Translations under genes and position numbers: made by a program | Shown here: piece after piece, positions 1 through 52,300 of the stretch | How the letters are laid out: every line of letters starts with the position of its first letter | Numbering within the stretch: the first letter of the stretch is position 1 | DNA from: Amphirosellinia nigrospora | Taxonomy: Eukaryota > Ascomycota > Sordariomycetes > Xylariales > Xylariaceae | DNA length: 64,000 bases | Assembly: GCA_004123355.1 (NCBI GenBank) | Contig: SCHM01000004.1 | Location: 4,248,316 to 4,312,315 of the forward strand | Direction of reading: 5' to 3' | The notes under the pieces: model-generated | Database searches by the model: none | What the model was told of the DNA's origin: nothing | The model's input: only the letters and a program-made list of their open reading frames with translations

Positions 1-3000
1 AACTTATATATATTAAACGTTTTTTGTTTTTTTTAGTTTTAATTTTTTTAGCTAGTTATTTGTTTTTTTATTTTTTGCTAGTATTTTTAAATAAGTTTTA
101 TTTATTTTTTAAATTAGGCGAACTTTTTATTTTAATTATAAACGATTATATTATTAAGTTAAAATTATATTTAATATAGCTTTTTTTTTAATATAAGCTT
201 TTTAAAAAATATATATTAATTTTAGCTTTAATTAATATAAGTTTAAAAGTAATAATATATAGTATATAATTTATTTAGGTTAAAAAGATTATATGTTTAA
301 GTATAAGCGTTTTTTAATTTTTTTATTTGTTTTAAATTAGTAGAAATATATAGGTTATTTAAGGCGTAAATAAACAAATAGTTAAAACTATATATAATTA
401 TTTATATATAGCGTTAATAAAAGTTTTAAATAAATAGCAGATTATATATTTAAATTTAAGTTAAATATATTATTAGCAATAAAATTATTTATAGTAAATT
501 TTTATTTATTTTAAATTATTTATTTATTTAGCTATATTAAAGAACTATTAATAATAAGTTTATTATAATTAAATAAATTATAGTAATTTTTTTTAGTAGT
601 TTTTTTTATAATAAAGTTATAAATTTTAATATTTATTTTTTAATATTTTTTTTTAAAAATTAATATATTTATAATTATAACTTTTAATGTTTTAGCTTTA
701 TTAAATAAAATATTAAAATATTATTTAAAGTTATAAATCGGTATAAAAAATATAGCTATTTTTTTTACGTTAATTAGTTATAAAGCTTAGCAGTTATTAA
801 TTTTTTTATTTTGTTCGGTATATTTAAAGCTCCGGTTAATAGCGGGGTTTTTTATTAATAGTTGTTTTTATTTTATATAATAGTTAATATTAAAAGTTAT
901 TTTGCTTTAAATAAATAATTATTCGTTAATATTAAAAAAAAGCAGTTTATAATAAAAATTTTTTAAAATAAATTAACTTTAAAACTAATATATAAAATAT
1001 TTAAACTAAGTAATATTATATAAATATATTTATTTTATATAAGCTTTAAGATTTTTTATTATTATATTAGAATTTTTTTACTAAAAGTTTTTTTTTTTAT
1101 TTAAATAAATAGCTTTTATATATTTAGCTATAGCGTTATTATATTATTTATTTTAGCTATAACGTAATAAAAAATAAATAAATATTGTTTTTTTTTATAT
1201 GCTTTTATACGCTATATTATTTATATTGTTTTATAATCTATAATATTAATTAAATTAATAAATATTTAGTATTTAAATAAAATATAATAATATTATTTGT
1301 TTTATTATATTTTTATATTATTTTTATTTATCGAGCGTTATAATTAATAATAATATTATTATTAATATATTTTTATATATTAATATAAACAAAATTTTTA
1401 ATATTTAATATAAAATAAAAGTTAGTAATTTTTTTATTAGCTAATTTTTTTTTTATTAATTTTTATTATTATTAAATAGTTTTTATAAAGCTAATTTATT
1501 AAAATAATTAAATAATTATTTTTATTTAAATATTCAAGTTTATTTATTAATATATTAAATTTATTAATAAATAATATTTATTTATTAATATTTTATTTGT
1601 TTAAAGCTTAAATATAGTTTAATTTATTTATAGCTTTTAAATATTTTTTTTTTTTTAAAACTTTTATTATAATAAAAATTAAAGCTTTTTTTTTAAAAAT
1701 TAAATATTATTTTAAAAGTATTTTAGTTATTTTTTTATAAACTTTAATAGTTTTAAAGCTATATTTTAAATTATATGTTTTATTTAATTTTTTATAAAGT
1801 TTTTTTAAAAATATTTAAAATAAAAATTTTTAATTAATAAACTATTTTTTATATATATATTATAATATTTTAATAAGCTATATATAGCTTTATTTTAAGT
1901 TATAAATTTTATATATAATATTATTATTTTTAATAATAAAATAGTTATTTATTTAAGTTTTAAATATTAAAAAGCTAAAAATATTTTTATAAAGTTAATA
2001 TTTTTAGATAAAAAATATAAATAATATTTTTAAACTTTAAGTAAACATTATTTATATAAATAAAAAAATATTAAACTATTAGTTTTTAGTTTTAAAAATA
2101 GTTTATTTTAGCTATTATTATTATATATTTTAAATTTAGTTTTATAAACGCGTTTAAAATATATTTATATTATTATTTATTAATAGTTTTTTATTAATAA
2201 GCTTAAGCTTATAATAATTTTATATTTTTTTATTTTTATTCGGTATAATATAATTAAAAGCTTAAAATATATTAATAAAAATATTAATTCTTATTATATT
2301 TTAATATTTTATTTATTATTTAAAATAAAATAGTAGGTTTATATTTATATAAGTTTTATTAAACTAGTAAAAATTTTTAAAAAATAGAAAATTTAATTAA
2401 GTTTTTTATTTTTTAGGCTTTATATTATTTTTATTTAAAATAAATATAAAATTATAAATTTTTTTTAATAAAAAGCTAATTTATAATAATAAATATTATA
2501 TTATATACGTTTATAAAACTAATAATTAGATTTTTTTTTAATTTATATTTAAGCAGTTTTATTTTAGCTAGAATATATATTTTAGCTAAATTAAATTATT
2601 TAAAAATATTATTTTTAAAGTTTTTAAGTCTATTATTATATTAATCAAATATAGTAAAAATATTTAATAGATTTAAGCAATAAATAATAAAAATAATTTT
2701 ATATATAGTAAAATAGCAAATATAAAAACGTTAATATTAAATTTTTATTAAAATAATAAATAAAACTTAAAACTTAAGTTTTTTTTAAAATAAGCTTTAA
2801 TTATAGTCGAAAATATTAAAATAATTATATAATAAAAAATTTTATAATTTTTTTTTATTATTATATTTATTATAAAAATTTTTTAAAAGTTTAAAAATAG
2901 TTTTATTTTTTTAGATTTAATAATTAGTTTTAGTATTAAAAGATTTTTTATTTTTTAGATTTTTTTTTAAAAAGCTTAAAATTTAATTAGTTTATATATA

Positions 3001-3357
3001 TATAAATTTTAAGCTATTTTAATAGATTTTTATTAGTTTATATAACTAATATAATTTAAAATAGTATAAATAAACGAGCTATAATTAAAAGCTAAGAATT
3101 TATATAATAGTATTTAATTTTACGGTTATTATAATAAGCGTAAATTTTAGAAAAAAGTAAATAAAATAAAAAAAATATAATATATTATATATAGTTATAT
3201 ATATTAGAAAACTTTTATTTTTAAAAAATAATAAAATAAAATTTGTTTTTAGTTAGTTATTATATATTAAATATATTAATTTAAAAAACTAAGTAAAGCT
3301 TTTAAAAAAAAAAAAAAAAACGTTTATAAATATTATAATTTATTTATAGGATGTTTT

Positions 3358-33770: not shown

Positions 33771-35155
33771 CTACCATCCTTCTGCGACGCCAGTGCAAGG
33801 TACAAAGACAGCGGAATGTGTAGAAACTACCGTCGCTGAACCCGTTACGCTTCCATGTGGGGATACACTCTTCCGGGAATGATGATCGTGCAGGTGTTTT
33901 GAGGTGTCCTTCCAAATATCTTGAACGACGCACTGATCGTGAATTGTAGTCTCGATATTACCCTTGGATTGGGTCGTTTCATGAGCGGATTTGCTTCGCC
34001 GGACCGTATCAACCGTATCAACCGCGTTGTTATCCCCATACACCTTTTTAGCTGACTTGTCACCGGTGAAGGGATCTGCTGCATATAGGCGCCACGATGA
34101 TGCAAATTCATCTATTTTCTTCTCGGGATTTTTGGTAGACTTGCCATTCGTAGGTGTTCTGCTGCCGGATTTCGAAGCAAACCCTAGTCCAATAGGAGAC
34201 CCATTATCTTTAAAACAGTGCGCCATTGCGTGTGCGTCGATAGGTCGTTGGATTCCAGAACCGTCAGGGCCGAGGCCGCTTCGATTCGACCATCCTTGCT
34301 TAGACAGAAGTTTGAATCCGTATGGATACTGAGAACTCAAGTTCGTCGCGTCTTTCGGTTTAACATCTTCATAGAAGTTAGAGGCTCCTAGGGTGTGCTT
34401 TTCAGCCTCTCGCACTGCAACAGCAATAGGTAGAGTCAGCTATCGTCTTTTTAGACAGTGGGTTTTGAGTTTCAGAAGCCCCTGGACTCTATCGTAGCTC
34501 ACACGGCAAATATTGTGCTCTCAAGGCTACTGATAGAAGAGGAGAACGAGTCTAAGAATGTCCTACCGAAACTATCGGGAGTGGTAGAGCGACCGATATG
34601 AATGCGCTCAAGCGTCTCGCACGCATTGCCCACATCGCCCCCATCGACACTTCTGGTAGTAGAGGCAACTACATCTTCCGGCGCGCTAGTGCAAGACGGC
34701 GTATTAGGATGTTCGGATGAAGCATCGTCCTCACCCCATTCTTGTCTTAATTGTTCAACGACTTCCCCCAAAAAAGGGTCAGTAGTTACCATGAGCAGTC
34801 AAGGTTTTGCATGACCATACGGAAAAAGACGTCGGTCCTGGGAAGACACTAGAATACTTACTTCGATAGATACCGGACATCTGTTCCTCATCCAAGGTAA
34901 TCTTCTTAGAAATATAAAGAGTGGCCTATCCGATATAATTTAGTTGGAGGCCCATAAAGTAGTGAGGGGAAGAGGTAGTACGTACAGTCAAAAAAGATGA
35001 TAAGCCAAATGTTTAGGTTTGACATTAGTAGTAATATCACCGAAAAACCGCTGAAATGAAGTCTTTAGGTGTTCAGTGCAATCCACAGATTTGATCAGTT
35101 GCTTGATGACTTCCTGGTGGAAGTCAATATCTGCGAGGTCAGGGGTATTCGCCAT
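33771..35155 (-). CDS. G-patch-domain protein, exon structure unresolved
   Basis: The 3' part (34,414-33,771) encodes a G-patch: FKLLSKQGWSNRSGLG, then GIQRPIDA and PIGLGFASKSG. G-patch domains bind RNA-processing partners, typically activating DEAH helicases. A possible first exon starts at ATG 35,155 (MANTPDLADIDFHQEV...), followed after a probable intron by a KITLDEEQMSG segment, then an acidic Ser/Thr-rich segment (34,792-34,505). A good intron is visible at 34,504-34,415 (GTGTGAG...CTGAC...TTGCAG), but joining it leaves the frame one base short, as in the neighbouring genes. The upstream exon borders (around 34,830-34,990) could not be settled. I do not recognise the N-terminal part. Confidence 0.5.
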
Positions 35156-43124: not shown

Positions 43125-43530
43125 ATGAAGCCCACCACACCTTTCGTCACGGCAATACTCGCATTTACACCTATCGTGTGTGCTGGCCCGGCCGCATATG
43201 GTATCTGTCAAGCTGGCTGTGCAGCTATCGTCACAGCATGCTACACAGCAGCGGGGTTTACTTGGGGGGCAACGGCCGGCCTCACAATACCAGCAAGCAT
43301 CGCCGCCTGTAACACTGCATTCGGTACCTGTCAGGCCTGCTGCGTGAGTGCTTTCTCTAAATCAATTTCTTCCTGGTTTTTGGCGATCTGTTAGAAAATA
43401 GGGTTTCGTTTTTATTTAGGTCAAGGCCAGTAGCTAAGGACTTCTAGAGCCCTCACCAATCAGGCTCAAAATAACGATAACTGACTCCGAGTTGTTCTAG
43501 TGGGCTGCCGTGATCGCTCCAGTGCCTTAA
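43125..43530 (+). CDS. Cys-rich small secreted protein (82 residues)
   Basis: Exon 1 (43,125-43,343) encodes a signal peptide (MKPTTPFVTAILAFTPIVCA) and a mature region starting GPAAYGICQAGCAAIVTACY, with further Cys in ACNTAFGTCQACC. Exon 2 (43,501-43,530) adds only WAAVIAPVP and stop. The 157-nt intron (GTGAGT...TTCTAG) was chosen because the resulting C-terminus AAVIAPVP resembles that of the widespread fungal family with a PAAYGICQAGC-type start; reading through the donor instead gives an unrelated tail. Mature length is about 62 residues with 7-8 Cys and many Ala/Thr. Function of the family is unknown to me; secretion is inferred. The intron is one of three related introns in this window. 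No frame break is present. Confidence 0.75.
43344..43500 (+). repeat. Introner-like element A (intron of the secreted protein gene)
   Basis: This 157-nt intron contains TTTCTTCCTGGTTTTTGGC, TTAGAAAATAGGGTTTCG and near its 3' end ATAACTGACTCCGAGT before TTCTAG. These blocks occur in the same order in the introns at 47,810-47,955 and 51,542-51,657. It is the longest of the three, with about 55 extra bases in the middle. It is the most divergent in the core but shares the 3' block exactly with element B. Confidence 0.65.
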
Positions 43531-44038
43531 GGCGAACGCCTATATGACATGGATTGGGCGATTCACTCACGCTACCTTGCACAGAAGATTACGAGGTGCT
43601 GGAATGACTTGGATAGCATGTGGAGGGGTAATATTCATATCTCTCACGCTCTGTGATAAGGGCTTGTGCTCAAGTGCTTGGAACTTGGAGTTCTGTCTAG
43701 CTAATAATCTCTCTGGAGTCTATAGGGGCTTTAGTTTCCTCATTATGACTTCAGTGTAACCTCGCCCTTTCCCTCAATTTATAGACGAATTCTAGGACCC
43801 TATTTCCTTGCAGGCCTTCGAAGTGTACCTTCTCAAGAACGGCTTCGTCTACAGAATCGGCCCCCTAGGACTCTGTGTGGCTCTGTCGCTACCTCTGTGG
43901 CTTGTCCGTGTGATACGCTCTATTTTACTTTTACTGCAGTTTTAACTGTTTATCTAATATTATAACAACAAAGAGTATGAAATATAGCTGACTGTTCATA
44001 ACTTAGCTGCCTAGGTAGCTCAACTTCTCCTATAATTA
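43531..44038. other. Convergent intergenic region
   Basis: Five hundred bases between the secreted-protein gene and the 3' end of the beta-lactamase-like gene. I see no gene; a short frame at 43,544-43,759 shows no recognisable features. Confidence 0.45.
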
Positions 44039-45190
44039 CTAAACTGTAACCCCCAGTGCCTCGTAGATCGCACCTACGTATGCCTTGGACGCAGTGTTTC
44101 CGATAACTGAGGCCGATCTCTTATTCATAGCATACGTAATAGTGATCTTACGACCGACATCCATGATACCAAGAGAACCGCCCGAGCCACCCCAATAGGC
44201 AATATCACCCGCAGGCATTAAATCATCGACCCAGTCTCCATCGCCCTTGATAGCATATCCGATACCGAAACGAATGGGCGATCCGATGGCGAGATCCGTT
44301 CCATTAGATTGTTCCTTGAAGATCAAGTCGACCGTCGACTTGGACAGCAGTTGCTTACGATCCCCAGTCCCCTCGCGACCTGCGAGCGTGATGGCGGAGA
44401 GTATTTGATTCATCGCATGAGCGTTGCTGTAACCATTGGAGGCACCGATCTCTCCTTGCATCCACGCAGGGCGTCTCCCCACATCAGGGGCCATCATAGG
44501 GTTCGCAATTGCTTTCATAAAAAGAGGGCCAGGCTTGAAATCTGAGTTCGGCCCTGACGGGGGCGTCGTCTTAGCGACACGAGCCACGTCTTTCTCCAAG
44601 ATGCCGAGTTGAAAATCGGCACCCAGGGGCGTCGCGATGTTCTTCGTGATAAACTGCTTGAGGCTCATTCCTGCCACACGACGCACGATCTCGCCCAGCA
44701 GGTGACCGAAACTATAGGCATGGTACGCAGATGCCGTGCCGGTTCCCACCACGGCGCCTGGGGGCCAGCTTCGCGGTGGAGGCGACGGGGTCACATATCT
44801 CGTCCATGGTGACCTTATCGTCCCAGCCGGCCACGCCGGAAGTGTGCGAGAGCAGATGGCGTATCTCGACGTTCTCTTTCCCATTGGCGGCAAACTCGGG
44901 CCAATATTTGGAAACCTTGTCTTCGACGGAGATGGCGCCGCTATCGACGAGCATGAGGACAGCAAGACTGCTGAACATCTTTGTGCTCGATGCTATGCCG
45001 ACGATGGTATCCTCGGCCCACGGCTGCTTGGTTGCTGGATCTGCATATCCGCCCAGATATTGACGACATCCTCACCGTCGACGTTGACTGCTATAGAGGC
45101 GCCGGTCTCTTCTCCTGAATCGACGAACTGCTGAAGAAGAGAACGAACCTTTTCGAACTGTGGGGTGCACTTCCCCTGTACTTCGGTCAT
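44039..45190 (-). CDS. Class C beta-lactamase / EstB-like serine hydrolase (frame-disrupted)
   Basis: Family members are DD-peptidase-fold esterases or transesterases; in fungi several act in secondary metabolism or detoxification. Start ATG 45,190 (MTEVQGKCTPQFEKV), no signal peptide, no intron needed. In order: GASIAVNVDGEDVVNIW, the SxxK nucleophile motif (ASSTKMFSSLAVL, visible after the first frame change), KYWPEFAANGKENVEIRHLLSHTSG (conserved), the Tyr motif region AYHAYSFGHLLGEIVRR, FQLGI..., and WGGSGGSLG as the third active-site element. It ends EALGVTV. Three single-base losses, near 45,053 (GGG), 44,762 (GGGGG) and 44,740 (GG), separate the pieces; all lie in G runs on the plus strand. 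With them restored the protein is about 385 residues, normal for the family. Confidence 0.85.
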
Positions 45191-45884
45191 GGTACCGATT
45201 CCGACAGTGTTAAGATAGAACAATTATAGAAGTAGGACTGGGTCAAGTGACAGTTCCCGAGCGATTAACCCAACAATAGCAATGCAGATAGCAAGGCGAG
45301 GGAATACTTGAATATATATAGAAGATGCTGAGACTATATGTGCTTATTTATATCATCAGTTACCTCGCTAACGTCTGTGGCACTTTGATGGTTGTTACCA
45401 ACTCCAACTAGCCTAGACTCCACGAGTGATCCTACAAGCCGGTGAAGCAGATGCGGCGTAACAGATCGGGATATCACACATCAGTACTAGTTTTGCCGCG
45501 TAATCAGGTTGCCTTAGTTCTTTGTAGGGTCTGGTTGTTTCGGTGATGGCCAACCCTTTCCGGACGCCGAGTGTGTAAGCGGGGCCGCAGTACCGCCCGG
45601 TGCGTGACTCATGCCGGGATGCTGAAATTGAAGCAGTCCATACTATTCGAGCTAGTCCTGGTGTACGGAGGATTTGACGCAGGCCAACAAGCAAAGACTA
45701 ATTAGGATAATGCGGCTCCTTAATGGACGATTGGAATGATAAAAGGTGAAGAATAGAGAGCTGTTAACTGCGGGAGGGTGTGTATGAGGTTTTCTGCAAA
45801 GACAATAACCGCACAAACACTTCGACTAAATCGCCCGCATGTCATAAGCCTCTTCTACATAGACAATAATTCTGGCCAAAAAAT
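45191..45884. other. Intergenic region upstream of the beta-lactamase-like gene
   Basis: Contains the promoter side of the gene ending at 45,190. TATATATA-like sequence lies at 45,312-45,320. No other gene was recognised; the frame at 45,413-45,694 has no recognisable features. Confidence 0.4.
45877..45884 (-). terminator. RNA polymerase III terminator
   Basis: A run of six T on the minus strand directly follows the tRNA 3' end, as expected for Pol III termination. Confidence 0.7.
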
Positions 45885-45980
45885 TGTTTCCGCCCGGGAT
45901 CGAACCGGGGATCTTCTGTGATCATTGAACAACTGGTGTTTGCATGTAAGACAGACGCCTAACCGCTAGGCCACGAAAAC
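45885..45980 (-). tRNA. tRNA-Val (anticodon UAC) with a 24-nt intron
   Basis: Read on the minus strand, the gene folds as a complete tRNA: acceptor GTTTTCG/CGGAAAC with discriminator A (45,885), D arm GCC/GGC with AGCGGTTA loop, anticodon stem TCTGT/ACAGA with loop CUUACAC, and T arm CCCCGG/CCGGG with TTCGATC loop. Anticodon UAC (positions 34-36) specifies valine. An intron of 24 nt lies at the canonical site between positions 37 and 38 (45,944-45,921). A-box and B-box sequences for Pol III are intact. Confidence 0.85.
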
Positions 45981-46840
45981 TTGTTAATTGGCCATCTTTC
46001 CAGATATATAAAGCTAGGCGCTAAGCATTGCTCACTGAATTGTAGAGATGCTCATACGACCAACGTAATAAACACAACAAGCAAGTCCTTTAAAAGATGC
46101 TTCTGCACATGTATTATTGGACACCACTGCTGACTCTTGCTAATGCCTGGATTCACCTTATATCAATTCGACTCCTACACCTGATATATCGAGACTTTAC
46201 GGTTTAATCATTCAAGTCGATCAACAACACAGATTAAGACTACCTTGCCGTAGTCCAAGGAAGAATGTCCATTCAAGGGCAATTCCCAAGGGAAGAAAAA
46301 CCCAAGAGCTCAGGTGGTAATGGCAGGCTTTGCCGCTATTGGGCGCAGTGTTCGAAAAGGCCGTGCTCTAGAAACAAGGGCTGAAAACAACTGTAAGGTT
46401 GTTTGTTGGGAAGCTCGACAAATGCTTTCACCTGAAACTCATGTATAGCAATGCGGAGTTCCTATATACTTGTCAGTGCTTTCTCAGGCCTTGACGTTGC
46501 TAATAGAATGGGAAAGAATAGCGAGAAAGTCAAAATATCTAATTGCTATCAACCTTGCTGACCATTGTGCTCACGCAACTATCTTGTTACCTCATAATGC
46601 CACTTAAAAGAGTATTCGTGTTTCAAGACCACCCTTACCGTTCAGCGAGACAGAGAAATGAAGTCTGGCATCTCTGCTTCAGCTTCAGTTGTAAAGTTAT
46701 ATAGCAACGGGAAGAAGAGCGCACCGCCTAGCTTAAACTCGCTGCGACTTTCTTATTTAGTTGCCTCTATCAGAATAAGTTATTATCATCTCATAGTACC
46801 TATTCAGAAGGGCCCTTACGAATTCGTCACGTAATTCTTG
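45981..46840. other. Intergenic region, nothing recognised
   Basis: About 860 bases between the tRNA 5' end and the carboxylesterase 3' end. No gene, repeat or RNA structure recognised. Confidence 0.45.
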
Positions 46841-48853
46841 TTATATCGGGACTTCTGCCGCCGCCTTCTCCCAAAATGCACACCTTTCTTTGAACTGGAC
46901 CAGTTCCGCGCTCGCGAACCCGGCGCTATCCACCACCCATTCCCGGCCAGTCCTCACGTCCGGCAACCCGGAAACGTCAGTTCCTGTCAGTTTCAAAGCG
47001 TTGGGATCACCAGTCATTACGAATGACGCCAAGGCGCCTGTCCAAATCAAGATTTTAGCAGAGTACTCGCGAACAGCTAGCTTGATTCCTTGTCAAGCAA
47101 GGGAGGGATGACGTAAATAAAGTAAATCTAACGAACCTGCGTAGCCTTGTAATGCAGAGGATCCTGCCGTTGGGCTGAATTGATCGTGTTCCACTAGTCA
47201 CGATCTCTCAGCACACGATCGACGCCAAGAAGCGAAACGCAAGACGATGCGTCGATGGTACATACCCAATATACATCGGAGGCATGTTGCGCCGGAGCGA
47301 TCGTGTACTCTCCGACCCAGCCGCCGTCCTTCGCACTGCCCGCCATCCAGTACGCGGGGCACGCGAGCGTCGAGTCTCTGTAGATCAGCCCAGCACGCGT
47401 AAACGAGTCGTTGTAGCCCGCGACGTGCTCCGCGCTCCCCGCTCCGGGTACAGTCCTTCGCTGGTCGAACAGGGCCGCGAGAGCGCCGGGAGATACCCCG
47501 ATAACCATTTTGTCGAAGGAAGCGGCCGCGCGTTGAAGGGCGGCGTGCCCGTGTCTACTTCGCTCTTCAACCCCCGGGATGAAATCTCGCCCTCGTGGTG
47601 TGTGTACATCCCATACCGGCGACGACACTCCCTCTCGACGTGCGTTGCGGCGGAAAGCGGCTCGCGTAGGAAAAACCATCGATCACGGGCCCCATTCGAA
47701 CGTCGACGTGGTATACTTGTGGCTGTCAACAATAGCGAGACTCGCATCGCGAATCTTCTGCACGTCTACGCTTTTAAGACACTTCAGGCTCTCCGGGCCC
47801 GCGCAGTTACTTTCACACTCGGAGTCAGTTATTGTCATTGAGAGCTGATCTATGGGAGTTTGAGAAGTTTTTGGGCAGTCTCTTATCCCACAACGGAAAC
47901 CTGGTGCTCTAAAAGTTGCTTTATTAGGAAGAAAATGGCACCAAGAATTACTCACGTTAGGTTAGCTAGAGTGTCATATCGCCACTGCGCCTCGGGCGCG
48001 TCGACACGATACGTCTTAGGCCAGAACGGGCTCGAAGCGAGGGCTTGTCGAAACAGCGGCTTCTCTGCCTTCCCCTCTATTTCTGCCGTTGGCGCCGTTT
48101 TCATGATTCGCAATGGTTTGCGCTAGTACGCTGCCGCCGCCCGCCGACTGACCCCAGACAGTGATCCTGTCGGGATCGCCGCCAAAAAGGCTGATGTACT
48201 TCCGCGTCCAGCGCAGCGCCATCGCTTGGTCTAGCAACCCGGCATTGGCGTCCGAGAACGGGTCTTCTGCGACTTCTCTGCCCGGTAGGAATCCGAACGC
48301 ATTGACGCGGTAGTTTGGATACACGAAGATCATGTTGCTCGAATCGGAGACATTGAGGATGGGATAGGCGGATGGTGGAAGAGTGAATGAAGCTGATCCC
48401 TGGATGAAACCGCCACCGTAAAAAGTCACGACGACAGGACGTAGCGACGCATCCGGCATCCAAGGCCGACCGTACAGCCCGAGGTAGAGGCAGTCCTCAG
48501 AGCCGTTGACGGTCCGCTGTGGGCACATATCAAACGGTTGAGATGAGTCGTAAACACCATGAGTAGTTGGTAATGGTAGTTGAGGGGCCCGGAACCTACA
48601 GGGTGAATAAACATGAGCAATCTTCCGCCTGTGATCGATAATTTGAATTAGTTCAAAATAGGATTTTCTACTATGTTTACCTGTTCTGGCCTATGGGCGG
48701 CGCAGCAAACGGGATCTTTTGCCAGTATGAGATATTGTAGACCGGGTCAAATGCTCCTTGAAATGTCCCATAGTCGAGGGCCGCAGTGAGGACCTGTGAA
48801 TCGCCAACTCTTACAAGAAGAGAAAGACATACCACACCTATAAACGAGAGCAT
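46841..48853 (-). CDS. Secreted type-B carboxylesterase/lipase (frame-disrupted, four introns)
   Basis: Hydrolyses carboxylic esters outside the cell. Start ATG 48,853 gives a signal peptide MLSFIGVVCLSLLVRVGDSQ, then DYGTFQGAFDPVYNISYW and FAAPPIGQNRFRAPQ. Introns: 48,680-48,596, 47,955-47,810 (an introner-like element), 47,265-47,194 and 47,136-47,038. Motifs in order are NGSEDCLYL, VVVTFYGGGFIQGS (oxyanion hole), nucleophile elbow VWGQSAGGGS, FEWGPVIDG, and HHEG near the acid region. The expected catalytic His lies in the last third; HYKGYAG and the ALASFVMTGDPNALKL C-terminal region are present. About five frame breaks occur (around 48,060-48,090; 47,690; 47,675; 47,445; 47,145). Most are one lost base; the first is two lost or one gained. 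It is probably a functional gene under sequence errors. Confidence 0.85.
47810..47955 (-). repeat. Introner-like element B (intron of the carboxylesterase gene)
   Basis: A 146-nt intron (GTGAGT...GTGAAAG) splits the codons for NLTN. Its core CCATTTTCTTCCT, GCAACTTTTAGAGCAC, GGTTTCC and GGATAAGAG is nearly the same as in the helicase intron at 51,542-51,657. Its 3' block ATAACTGACTCCGAGT is identical to that of the secreted-protein intron. The acceptor AAAG is unusual but preserves the frame into NCAGPESLKCLKS. Confidence 0.75.
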
Positions 48854-49358
48854 AATTGCAATTGGGAAGCCCGATAGTTAATCCTGCCTTGCGAAGACTT
48901 GAGTACTGCTGCCTTTATCTCTGTCTGTAAAGCCCCATCTATCCTTTACCCGGTGGGTTCGCCATGCCCAATTAGTTCTCTTCAACTTGGGGTGAGCGAC
49001 GGGGAAATTGGAGATCTAAGCCAAGCGAATAGCTAGAGTGTGGTTTTCATGTAGCTCGGCCTCCATTGCCCCTTTCACCGAGCCCAGTATTTCCAGTAAT
49101 TTCTTTACCGTGAGGCATTCCACCGCTTACAGTATACTATCCATATACCAACCTTCTCCGTTGATCATGTCCTCAATTCCTTAACAAGCGTCGTCTCATA
49201 ACACTCATCGGTTGTCTTACTGCCTCTGAATCTTCTGAGTAGAAGCATAGGTATCTCATGTTGCAAGTTGCTCAGCACCCACCTATCACCTTCGTGATCA
49301 CATTGCGTTTATAATAGAGGCGCACTACGACAAGAAACGATGCCTCCTGCTCGGTGGT
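48854..49358. other. Intergenic region between carboxylesterase start and helicase end
   Basis: Same-strand spacer of about 500 bases holding the carboxylesterase promoter. I found no distinct element. Confidence 0.4.
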
Positions 49359-52300
49359 TCATTCTTGGTCAAGCTCTTGCTGCATCTCGGCCTCTATGAA
49401 AAAAAGTTAGATCTTGACATTCATAATGCATATATATACTTACGCCAAATACGATTGGCTGAATCCGTTATGACTTGGGCTTTAGCGAGGAGTTTCTCCT
49501 CATACTTTTGTTCATCTTTCGACTTAACTCGCAATTTAGTTGGTTGCGCCTGTAATTGCACTTAGTTTAGCCATGCATATGGGTATACTAAACGGACCTG
49601 CATGAGGATAGGCACAATTTCCTTTGGATCTGCATTTGCGAGCAATGCCACGGTCTTGAATCCGTTGTCATAGAAGACCGGGCTGTTCGACTCTTGATGA
49701 AGGTGACTTTGGAGAGGGCTAAAAGGTCTGCCTTAGCTCCGGCTCTGAGGCGGTCCGAGAAATGATCTAAAATGGCTGCCATGGCGCTGATGGATATCAG
49801 CAACTTAAGTCTTTTCGGTTGATTTAGTATTGGTTGGAACTTACCCCCAGCCCATTTGCTCGCAGAATTTAATCATTCCTGCCGCAAACCCTTGGCATGT
49901 CTGCTCTAGAGTCTGGACGGTACCCCTTGGCATATCATATTTGCGAGCTACCATGTGTACGGGCATTTCGTTGCATAGATCCCTTAGCTGAAGAGCAAGG
50001 TAGAACCTTCTGTAAAACGAGCGACTTCTTTCTCTGTTGCGGTGGATTCCTTAAGATTTCCGCCCTGTGCCCTAGGATACACGTTAACAAGTTGACGCTG
50101 GTCAAGAAAGATCCCGCATACATTCTGTTAACCACGTGAATTTCAACCCGAGAAGCGTCATAACCCGGAGTCCACTTTTATCAAGTGCTTCCATCTCAGA
50201 CCTAAAGACTTGCCAATTAACAGAGACGGAAAACTCTTGAACAGGGGTGAAAGTATAAAGAATATGCATTTCACCATCCATCACGAACGCCTGCAATGCT
50301 CGCTGCATTTCGCGATGAACGAATGCACCATCTGCGGGCTCAAGAGACGATGCAACAACTGCCTTTCCTAATTGCGTCGCAGTGTAAGAATCGTAGCTGT
50401 CATATTGAATAAACCCCATCCCCAGAAGATTTGCAGACTGGCTTCGACGTGATCTTGGATCTTGTCGGATGTGCTAGAGGATTTAGAAGCGTTTTCCGAA
50501 TATAATCACTGATAGACTCTCGTGAGTTCACTAGCCTTATAGATATAACCTCTAGCAGCGCTCGTTGAATTCGCTGCTTGTCAGTTGTCAAACCGCTTGA
50601 GATACGTGGTAGGTCTGCATTCATCAACTCGACCACATCTTCTAGGTCAGATTTACGACAGCAGAGATAAGTCTCGCCTATCTCGTCTTTACCCTTCCTC
50701 CCTGCACGTCCACGCATTTGACGTAACATCGAAGGCCCAATCAAGTCACGGCCCATTCGTGCGTTATGAAGGATAACTCTACGAGCTGGAAGATTGATAC
50801 CAGCGGCAAGGCTGCATGTTGCTACCACAACCTTCAGCGATCCGCCATCGTAGGCGGTGGAGATCAAGTCGCGCTCTTCTGTTGTCATCCCAGCATGGTG
50901 GAAAGCGACGCCGGCTAGAATAGTCTCAGCTAAGATAGGATCAAGACCGGTCGACAAACTACGAAGATCCCCTAGGAGATCTGTTCGCTTCTCAAGAACA
51001 ATAGAATCTAGCTCGTCAGGCTGGGGCAGTACCTTGCTAATAAGACGAGCGTCTGACTCGCATCCTGGGCGGCTGCTGCAGAAGACGAGAACGCCGTAGC
51101 CAGATCTTGCTGTTTCATTCGCTAGCGCAATAACAGCATTCAAGACAGGGTCTTGGAATTCCTTGTGCTGACTTGCACGTATTTTCCTCACTGGTTGACT
51201 GTCTAGCTCGAGGGCACTGCTAGAATGCTGTCGTAGTTGACTGGCGGTTTTCAGTATGCTTGTTGTGCCCGATGCTGGGTAGATGTTCCTTCATAGACAA
51301 GATGCTCTTCCACAGGTATAGGGCGATAAAATGTCTTGTATGTGTGGGCATCAAGCCATGCCGACAAGACTTCCATGTTCTAGCGCCGTTAGCAACCGTA
51401 AGTAGAATGTCAGTAGCCAGATAATACATACAGCCAAGGTGGCGCTCATGCCAATGATCTGGACGCTATGATCGAGGCTCATCAACTTTGTAGCGATGAG
51501 CTCCATTAGGTAGCCTCTGTGGTCATCGTCGACCATGTGCACTATGGCACTCGGGTCAGTTACCGCAGCTTCAAGATACTCTTATTTCCAAAAAGGAAAC
51601 CGCGTGCTCTAAAAGTTGCCAAAACAAGGAAGAAAATGGTTCCGAAATTTGTCTTACGTTCGTCAAGGACTACAGCTTTTAAATTGGTGATAGTGCAATC
51701 GTCTATAGCTGTGTTAATGAGCATATTTGCCTGTTGAGATTAGAATGAGACTTCAGAGGGCATGACGACGTCAGCAAACCTTTTCAAATGTGCAAACGCC
51801 AATGTCGAAATCTGACCAGGTGGCCCTGACCTTAGCGCCACCAAAAAACCCGACGACTCTCACATCGTCCTCATCTGGCCGTTTCTGCCAGGTTCGGGGC
51901 TTCTCGTCTTGTTCATTAATTTCAAGTGGCTTTTTCTTGATATTCTGGACAATATAGCGTAGCCATCGAACCTTTTCCTGTACGAGAGCCACATATGGAA
52001 GAATCAGAAGAGCCTTTGCATTTCTGTCCTCTAAAACCCTCTTTAACATCAGTATATCAGCGACGAGAGACTTCCACCACCTGTGGGAGCGGAATATACT
52101 AGGTTCCTGGACCCATTTAAAAGACCGGGACCCAGAAGGCATTGTTTCTGCCACGGATAGATTTCCTTGATACCAAGAGTATTTAGATTGTGTACTAGAG
52201 ATTCTGGCAGAGCATATCTCGAGAATGATAAGGAAAGGGAAGGGTCAGCAGTAGAAGTAGGGGTGGCAGATATCACTTTGCGTTGAGAGTACTCAGACGG

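What the first reader, a model, noticed from the sequence alone, without database searches (positions are those of the whole stretch)
43344..51657. Introns of three unrelated genes share sequence: an introner-like element family
The introns at 43,344-43,500 (+, secreted protein), 47,955-47,810 (-, carboxylesterase) and 51,657-51,542 (-, helicase) carry the same blocks in the same order: TTTCTTCCT, a GGCAACTTTTAGAGCAC-like block, GGTTTCC, and the branch/3' block TAACTGACTCCGAGT. B and C match at about four of five positions over roughly 64 core bases; A and B share a 16-base 3' block exactly. The genes are not homologous and the introns sit in different phases (0, 2 and 1). Unrelated introns should not align like this. 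Introner-like elements are known from some fungi (notably Dothideomycetes), so multiplication of an intron sequence is the natural explanation; their presence in this lineage would need establishing.
Basis: partly seen in the sequence, partly recalled or inferred. Interest (0 to 1): 0.8.

Follow-up and report, generated by a model that had tools for sequence, protein, structure and literature searches.

The report
Self-multiplying intron family in a fungus
The similar introns in unrelated genes are real: they belong to a family of well over a hundred related copies of one roughly 146-base intron scattered through this fungal genome, which appears to have inserted itself cleanly into gene after gene, so it may show how new introns are born.

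Summary
A profile built without window sequence finds introns B, A and C at E=1.5e-34 to 1.9e-17, plus a fourth copy at 34,566-34,415 (-); the reversed window gives 0.3 at best. In the 48.1-Mb genome I located 160 places, 100 by full DNA match and 60 by an exact end motif alone. 89 full-length GT...AG copies have modal length 146; 20 are at least 90% identical to another. Sampled copies lie in the sense strand of varied genes (Pfam: 13 of 20 sense ORFs, 0 of 10 antisense). Of eight host proteins, six aligned through the junction, none with a gap at it. One site is unbroken in 19 paralogous places. No target-site duplication was found. New: the fungus is probably of Xylariales (recalled from rDNA); the family prefers A^T(G) sites (+1 T in 64 of 89), unlike published fungal families; its ends carry a short inverted repeat placed as in Xylariales stwintrons but with another sequence. 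It is not a stwintron and its fold is not unusually stable. Splicing and gain relative to sister species were not testable here.

The parts
43344..43500 (+). Introner copy A, 157 bases, phase 0, in a small Cys-rich putative secreted protein; site C^TG
   Evidence: HMM without window copies E=1.5e-18
47810..47955 (-). Introner copy B, 146 bases (modal length), phase 2, in a carboxylesterase-like gene; site C^TA
   Evidence: E=1.5e-34; as a query it returned 40 genome matches, itself included
51542..51657 (-). Introner copy C, 116 bases (about 30 bases deleted), phase 1, inside the DELH motif of a DNA polymerase theta/HelQ-type helicase; site C^TG
   Evidence: E=1.9e-17
34415..34566 (-). Fourth introner copy (not in the finding), 152 bases, phase 1, in a G-patch protein; site G^TG
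   Evidence: E=4.4e-15; G-patch
47941..47951 (-). 5' near-terminal inverted-repeat arm of B (donor nt 5 to nt 15, GTAATTCTTGG; family consensus GTAAYTCTCGG)
47814..47822 (-). 3' near-terminal inverted-repeat arm of B between branch point CTGAC and acceptor (CCGAGTGTG; family consensus CCGAGTRTTGT)

Best explanation
These introns are copies of a multiplying spliceosomal intron, an introner-like element. The unit that multiplies is exactly the intron, from GT to AG. Each copy carries its own donor, branch point (CTGAC) and acceptor, so once inserted in the sense strand of an exon it can be spliced out and the protein stays unchanged. Copies prefer A^T(G) sites and, where testable, add or remove no exonic bases. 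Shown by calls: the family and its minimum size, precise ends, sense orientation and seamless junctions in the copies that could be tested, absence from the ALDH paralogues, no detectable target-site duplication, and the site preference. Inferred: that splicing happens in vivo, and that copying passes through the excised intron RNA (reverse splicing into transcribed DNA, or intron RNA captured at a break). I infer RNA because the borders coincide with both splice sites and no target-site duplication was found. The near-terminal inverted repeat, which would bring the two ends of the excised intron together, may help copying as proposed for Xylariales stwintrons. Introner-like identity about 0.95; the RNA route about 0.55.
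For: 160 places, 100 by full DNA match and 60 by exact 15-base end motif alone; all 40 scored hits of B, itself included, at E<=3.5e-9. 89 full-length GT..AG copies, modal length 146. 20 of 89 have a neighbour >=90% identical, maximum 95.2%, with unrelated flanks. The exact splice gives the longest spanning ORF in 56 of 89 (five alternatives, about 18 expected). Pfam matches at E<=0.01 in 13 of 20 sense ORFs (11 over Pfam's cut-off) and in 0 of 10 antisense ORFs. Ungapped at the junction in 6 of 8 PDB searches. The ALDH site is broken by the introner in one gene and unbroken in 19 paralogous places, 17 without stops. Flank k-mer matches not above the largest of 100 re-pairings. +1 T 64/89 against 24/89 at +4, -1 A 38/89 against 13/89 at -4, and +1 T in 5/22 ordinary introns.
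Against: No RNA-seq and no sister species: splicing and recent gain are inferred. In 33 of 89 the exact splice is not the single best frame, and 7 of 20 sense ORFs had no Pfam match. The A^T(G) preference and the inverted repeat would also fit a DNA-level enzyme, and the preference is loose: A^T in 32 of 89, and none of the four window copies has A at -1, though all have T at +1. The arms show no clear compensatory change between copies (p=0.07; within subfamilies 0.23). MFE folds with at least 7 near-terminal pairs occur in 51 of 89 introners but also in 8 of 22 ordinary introns. Overall fold is ordinary (mean z -0.35; 8 of 89 below -2). RNAalifold found no consensus pair.
Confidence: 0.6

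Rival explanations
1. DNA-transposon route: the introner is a short non-autonomous DNA element (MITE- or Helitron-like) that carries both splice sites and is moved by a transposase at A^T(G) sites.
For: Preferred A^T(G) site; short inverted repeat near the ends; Helitrons insert at A^T without duplication (recalled). Most introner families outside ascomycetes show a DNA-transposition mark (PMC9860276, passages).
Against: No target-site duplication detected; ends coincide with both splice sites; Pfam support only on the sense side (13 of 20 sense, 0 of 10 antisense ORFs); the A^T rule is loose (A^T in only 32 of 89); no Helitron_like_N match in the genome (where no control genome rang either). 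No longer relative sharing the ends was seen, but none was searched for systematically.
Confidence: 0.25
2. Break-repair capture: excised intron RNA (or DNA) is captured at double-strand breaks at random sites, as proposed for Hypoxylon sister introns.
For: Seamless insertion and no duplication fit; near-terminal repeat placed like NTIRE-10 (PMC12403724, sections).
Against: Random breaks predict no site preference, but +1 T is 64 of 89 (binomial p=2e-22 against 0.23).
Confidence: 0.15
3. The similarity comes from a conserved functional RNA (for example a snoRNA) hosted in introns, or from ancient shared introns, not from multiplication.
For: Similar introns in unrelated genes can host ncRNAs (recalled).
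Against: Window 32,000-56,000 has two Rfam matches at E<=1, a tRNA and a sub-threshold snoRNA, and neither overlaps an introner; the similarity runs over the whole intron including the splice signals; near-identical copies have unrelated flanks.
Confidence: 0.02
4. Local gene or segmental duplication carried the introns along.
For: 20 of 69 merged pieces carry two or more HMM hits (one of these, C1_10304072, is probably one copy split into two hits).
Against: The nearest relative lies in the same piece for only 3 of 89 copies although 41 are in multi-copy pieces; flanks of near-identical copies are unrelated.
Confidence: 0.02

Closest known systems
Introner-like elements (ILEs) of Dothideomycetes (Zymoseptoria, Fulvia, Dothistroma)
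   Same: Canonical spliceosomal introns in many sequence-similar copies in unrelated genes, sometimes two in one gene, families of differing age (PMC4457414: abstract, introduction and results part 1 of 2 read); seamless insertion (as cited in PMC8469720).
   Different: Other lineage (rDNA, recalled); [quoted passage not shown] no unusually stable fold here. Sequence relation not tested, as their sequences were not in the text I saw.
[quoted passage not shown] 2021, 2025)
   Same: Probably the same order (recalled); multiplying intronic units, seamless, no target-site duplication; near-terminal inverted repeats placed alike (5' arm starts at donor nt 5, 3' arm between branch point and acceptor).
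   Different: Here single canonical introns, modal length 146, not [D1,2] stwintrons (base -1 is G in 22 of 89); arm sequence GTAAYTCTCGG/CCGAGTRTTGT versus GUAUAAAAAC/GUUUUUAUGU; exon bias where they report none (PMC8469720; PMC12403724); at least 160 places in one genome versus 288 stwintrons across 14 species. Full sequences of theirs were not seen, so homology is not excluded.
Introners of algae and other aquatic eukaryotes (Micromonas, Aureococcus; Gozashti et al. 2022)
   Same: Repeated introns inserted into exons genome-wide.
   Different: Among their families 49 of 130 show target-site duplications and 72 of 177 terminal inverted repeats, and some borrow a splice site; ascomycete families are called outliers with neither (PMC9860276). 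This family has no detected duplication but does have a short near-terminal inverted repeat.

Membership tests
Fungal introner-like elements (ILEs) | Many sequence-similar introns in unrelated genes | tested here: met
   100 places by DNA match plus 60 by exact end motif alone; 89 full-length copies; 12 different Pfam families among 13 matching hosts
Fungal introner-like elements (ILEs) | Canonical splice signals and in-frame splicing predicted | tested here: met
   GT donor in 89 of 91 near-full-length copies; exact splice gives the longest frame in 56 of 89
Fungal introner-like elements (ILEs) | Seamless insertion without target-site duplication | tested here: met
   of eight PDB searches six junctions ungapped, one not aligned through the junction, one without match
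Fungal introner-like elements (ILEs) | Recent gain: absent at orthologous positions in relatives | tested here: inconclusive
   No relative genomes held; in paralogues the ALDH site is unbroken in 19 places, 17 of them without stops
Fungal introner-like elements (ILEs) | Predicted stable secondary structure or internal symmetry (as cited in PMC8469720) | tested here: not met
   Fold: mean z -0.35, 8 of 89 below -2. Symmetry with own reverse complement is modest: mean z 1.51, 32 of 89 above 2, best-scoring 30 copies 2.23. Near-terminal duplex <= -10 kcal in 39 of 89 versus 172 of 1780 shuffles
Fungal introner-like elements (ILEs) | Splicing shown by RNA | not testable with these tools
   no RNA data
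[D1,2] stwintrons | Begins GGT, internal intron splitting the donor between nt 1 and 2 | tested here: not met
   -1 is G in 22 of 89; one-step removal gives the longest frame in 56 of 89
[D1,2] stwintrons | NTIRE-10 sequence near the ends | tested here: not met
   Arms present at like places, consensus sequence different
DNA-transposon-derived introners | Target-site duplication | tested here: not met
   k-mer matches between flanks not above the largest of 100 re-pairings, though 3- and 4-mers lie above the mean
Helitron | Strict A^T insertion and Rep/helicase partner | tested here: not met
   A^T in 32 of 89; no PF14214 match, but no control genome rang, so the partner gene is not excluded

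The most novel reading that the evidence does not exclude
A fungal introner family with a definite target preference, A^T(G), and no target-site duplication: the excised intron, its ends held together by a near-terminal stem, is inserted precisely between A and T of the coding strand by a sequence-recognising step that neither random break repair nor standard transposition explains. If so, the activity that makes new introns in ascomycetes could be sought as an A^TG-recognising one.
Probability: 0.3. Interest if true: 0.82.

Novelty: new member of a known kind. Interest (0 to 1): 0.6.

Why it matters
How new spliceosomal introns arise is a long-standing question, and ascomycete introners are the unexplained exception: a large survey found no target-site duplications or terminal inverted repeats in them (PMC9860276), and the site preferences reported (AG/GY in Dothideomycete ILEs as cited in PMC8469720, none in Xylariales stwintrons) do not point to an enzyme. 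A family with well over a hundred copies, some 90-95% identical, with precise borders and a measurable A^T(G) site preference gives a concrete handle on the mechanism, and a practical system if sister strains carry polymorphic copies.

Tried and rejected
Consensus RNA structure over 53 copies: RNAalifold gave no pairs. Covariation: mutual information looks dominated by subfamily structure, and the near-terminal stem shows no clear excess of pairing within copies over pairing between copies (p=0.07; 0.23 within subfamilies; of 13 single column pairs two, 8-142 and 15-135, are nominally below 0.05 on Watson-Crick pairs). I therefore drop an earlier idea of compensatory change (note). Whole-element hairpin: the consensus scores 60 against its own reverse complement, shuffles 42.9 +/- 12.9 with maximum 88, which is modest. 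Microhomology with the donor copy's flanks: 42 pairs of close copies share the base at -1 (0.50 vs 0.29 in all pairs) and +1 (0.67 vs 0.54) more often, while further positions scatter both ways, so I see no hitch-hiking of flanks. Helitron partner: none found, control uninformative. Codon-usage test of the coding strand was weak: training on 6,661 codons, upstream and downstream best frames agreed in 60 of 89, antisense scored better in 18 of 89; I used Pfam instead. C at -2 is not significant against -5 (40 vs 30, p=0.17), so I do not claim a CATG palindrome. A Lincoln-Petersen estimate of about 250-260 from exact end patterns assumes independence and is rough. Species identification by literature search gave nothing. 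In-print checks: in the listings I saw no title or abstract opening describing this family; the only three papers holding both 'introner' and 'Xylariales' are the Fekete papers. The supplementary species list of PMC9860276 was not readable here, so the family may already be listed there.

Dropped rows and biases: of 101 HMM hits (at most 100 copies, since the two hits in L048 adjoin), those starting after model position 12 or ending before 130 were left out; of the remaining 91, two lacked GT near the start. Window copy C is therefore not among the 89. The copies were fetched as best BLAST hits and exact pattern matches, so young copies are over-represented; the 30 loci chosen for an exact TAACTGACTCCGAGT match bias the 3' end towards the consensus. 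The 22 ordinary introns come from a strict rule-based search, not from annotation. For the Pfam test I sampled 24 copies, one per piece, and sent one sense ORF each for 20 of 24 (for three of these the second-longest ORF, chosen by eye) and one antisense ORF for 10 of 24, so sense and antisense sets only partly overlap. Host proteins for the PDB searches were chosen for long ORFs or because they are in the window.
Full report
What was claimed and what is there. The three introns are at the stated places, with the stated phases and, for B and C, the stated blocks; A is more diverged. To test chance I built a profile from 86 copies that lie outside the window and scanned the window: B E=1.5e-34, A 1.5e-18, C 1.9e-17, and a fourth copy at 34,565-34,432 (-) 4.4e-15; the reversed window's best hit is 0.3. 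The fourth intron runs from 34,566 to the AG at 34,415 and lies in a G-patch protein.

Family size. The window lies in a 48.1-Mb genome of 11 contigs. BLAST with B scored 40 of 49 candidates and all 40 matched, 70-82% identical apart from itself and mostly over nearly the full length. Three further queries each had 40 candidates scored and 40 matches; the diverged copy A found only itself and one other place. The 3' motif TAACTGACTCCGAGT with up to 2 mismatches occurs 332 times against 77 for the reversed pattern; the 5' motif GTRMGYAAYTCTCGG with up to 1 mismatch 251 times against 32. Merged, the places of the four DNA searches make 100 and, with the exact (0-mismatch) end motifs, 160 distinct sites on seven contigs. 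The 60 added ones rest on a 15-base motif alone. The tool scores only its best candidates, so these are lower bounds for recognisable copies.

Anatomy. From 69 merged stretches (280 kb) the profile gave 101 hits, 91 of them near full length and 89 with GT and AG ends; length runs from 114 to 169 with mode 146. The consensus begins GTGAGTAATTCTCGG and ends AATAACTGACTCCGAGTGTTGTAG: donor, branch point CTGAC, acceptor TAG. Subfamilies differ in the donor: GTGCGT/GTACGT type 39, GTRAGT 31, GTAAGC type 15, others 4. 20 of 89 have a neighbour at least 90% identical, the highest being 95.2%; mean pairwise identity is 63%. Differences between close copies are mostly transitions, 212 to 85 over 22 pairs. 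So copying was spread over time and includes fairly recent events (inference).

Genes and splicing. Removing the exact intron gives the longest spanning reading frame in 56 of 89, against about one in five expected from shifting the acceptor by -2 to +2. Of 24 randomly sampled copies, 20 had one sense ORF scanned: 13 match Pfam at E<=0.01, 11 of them over Pfam's cut-off (AMP-binding twice, MFS, UstYa, GH18, ADH, G-patch, P450, GH92, fucosidase, amino-acid permease, HTH_AAA_fung, FMN oxidoreductase; GH18 and the FMN oxidoreductase are below cut-off). Seven had no match. Of 10 antisense ORFs none match. Of the 20 stretches with two or more hits, 18 have them all on one strand; the exceptions are the window, which holds several genes, and one region with two hits on each strand. 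Some stretches hold three or four copies with only 28-51 bases between neighbouring introners.

Seamless insertion. Eight host proteins were compared with solved structures. In six the alignment runs through the intron position without a gap at it: aldehyde dehydrogenase, two P450s, a GH76 enzyme (one-residue gap a few residues upstream), an NRPS adenylation domain (two-residue gap about eight residues upstream), and the polymerase-theta-type helicase of intron C, where the intron splits the L codon of the DELH motif. One was not aligned through the position and one had no match. In the ALDH gene the intron breaks the protein at residue 110; 19 other ALDH places in the same genome run across that residue unbroken, 17 of them without stops; two further partial matches end before it. 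Paralogues are not orthologues, so this supports but does not prove gain.

Insertion sites. Flanks of close copies are unrelated immediately outside GT..AG apart from the bases at -1 and +1. Direct k-mer matches between the two flanks do not exceed the largest of 100 random re-pairings: best 3-mer count 44 (null mean 38, maximum 46), 4-mer 24 (17, 25), 5-mer 6 (5, 10), 6-mer 2 (1.7, 4). There is a clear site preference: +1 is T in 64 of 89 (24 of 89 at +4), -1 is A in 38 (13 at -4), +2 is G in 45 (26 at +5). In the 43 copies with a neighbour at least 80% identical, -1 is A in 25 and +1 is T in 33. In 22 rule-based ordinary introns +1 is T in 5 (Fisher p=4e-5). All four window copies have T at +1, but none has A at -1 (C, C, C, G). 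Introners with spliced ORFs of at least 120 aa are in phase 1 in 29 of 62.

Ends. The consensus carries a near-terminal inverted repeat, GTAAYTCTCGG at the donor and CCGAGTRTTGT before the acceptor (one U-U mismatch). The duplex of the two ends is <= -10 kcal/mol in 39 of 89 copies, against 172 of 1780 shuffles and 3 of 22 ordinary introns; minimum-energy folds with at least seven near-terminal pairs are less distinctive, 51 of 89 against 8 of 22. There is no clear compensatory change between copies (p=0.07), overall folding is ordinary (z -0.35), symmetry with the own reverse complement is modest (mean z 1.51, 32 of 89 above 2; best-scoring 30 copies 2.23, lowest 29 0.83), and RNAalifold finds no consensus pairs. 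I read the repeat as a property of the source elements rather than something maintained in each copy (inference).

Mechanism. Because the copied unit is exactly the intron and splice sites are carried rather than borrowed, the simplest route is through excised intron RNA: reverse splicing into transcribed DNA, favoured for Dothideomycete ILEs (as described in PMC8469720), or intron RNA captured at breaks, proposed for Hypoxylon (as described in PMC12403724). The A^T(G) preference is not predicted by random breaks and differs from the AG/GY preference attributed in PMC8469720 to ILEs. A DNA enzyme cutting at A^T without duplication, Helitron-like, is the main rival; strict A^T use was not met and no partner gene was found, with an uninformative control. 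Hence about 0.55 for an RNA route and 0.25 for DNA.

Known or new. Introner-like elements are well known. The rDNA spacers read to me like Xylariales, from recall and not a database match. In that order multiplying stwintrons and derived canonical introns are published. What I saw: PMC8469720, results parts 1-2 of 3, legends part 1, discussion part 1; PMC12403724, introduction, results parts 1-2 of 3, discussion and one methods section; PMC9024468, abstract and outline only; PMC9860276, abstract, outline, passages and one section; PMC4457414, abstract, introduction and results part 1 of 2. This family differs from the stwintrons: canonical single introns, other end sequences, exon bias present, more copies in one genome. 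PMC9860276 states that ascomycete introner families have neither TIRs nor TSDs. In the listings I saw no description of this family; the species list in that paper's supplement was out of reach. I therefore file it as a new member of a known kind with an unusual site preference.

Noticed in passing
window 1-32000: G+C of 7-13% over 32 kb, then an abrupt change to 45-58% with genes; mid-contig (4.25-4.28 of 8.2 Mb), so possibly a centromere or a heavily RIP-mutated block.
   Followed up: no
window 51542-51657: The introner splits the DELH helicase motif of a polymerase-theta/HelQ-type gene. PMC8469720 discusses a POLQ-like helicase, HelQ, in connection with the end-joining that crops stwintrons, and says its gene carries a stwintron in Hypoxylaceae; whether this is the same gene was not tested.
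   Followed up: partly
window 45885-45980 (-): tRNA gene, 96 bases long and so probably with an intron, Rfam 52.9 bits.
   Followed up: no
L064 about 2330-2470 and 2930-3070: Two similar stretches, seen by eye, within or beside the small-subunit rRNA region, perhaps related rDNA group I introns.
   Followed up: no
C4:8103869 piece (L022), C6:5889748 piece (L012): Three and four introners in one stretch, presumably one gene, with as little as 28-51 bases between neighbours.
   Followed up: partly
L008, L030: Two near-full-length copies without GT at the expected donor position, possibly dead or shifted introns.
   Followed up: no
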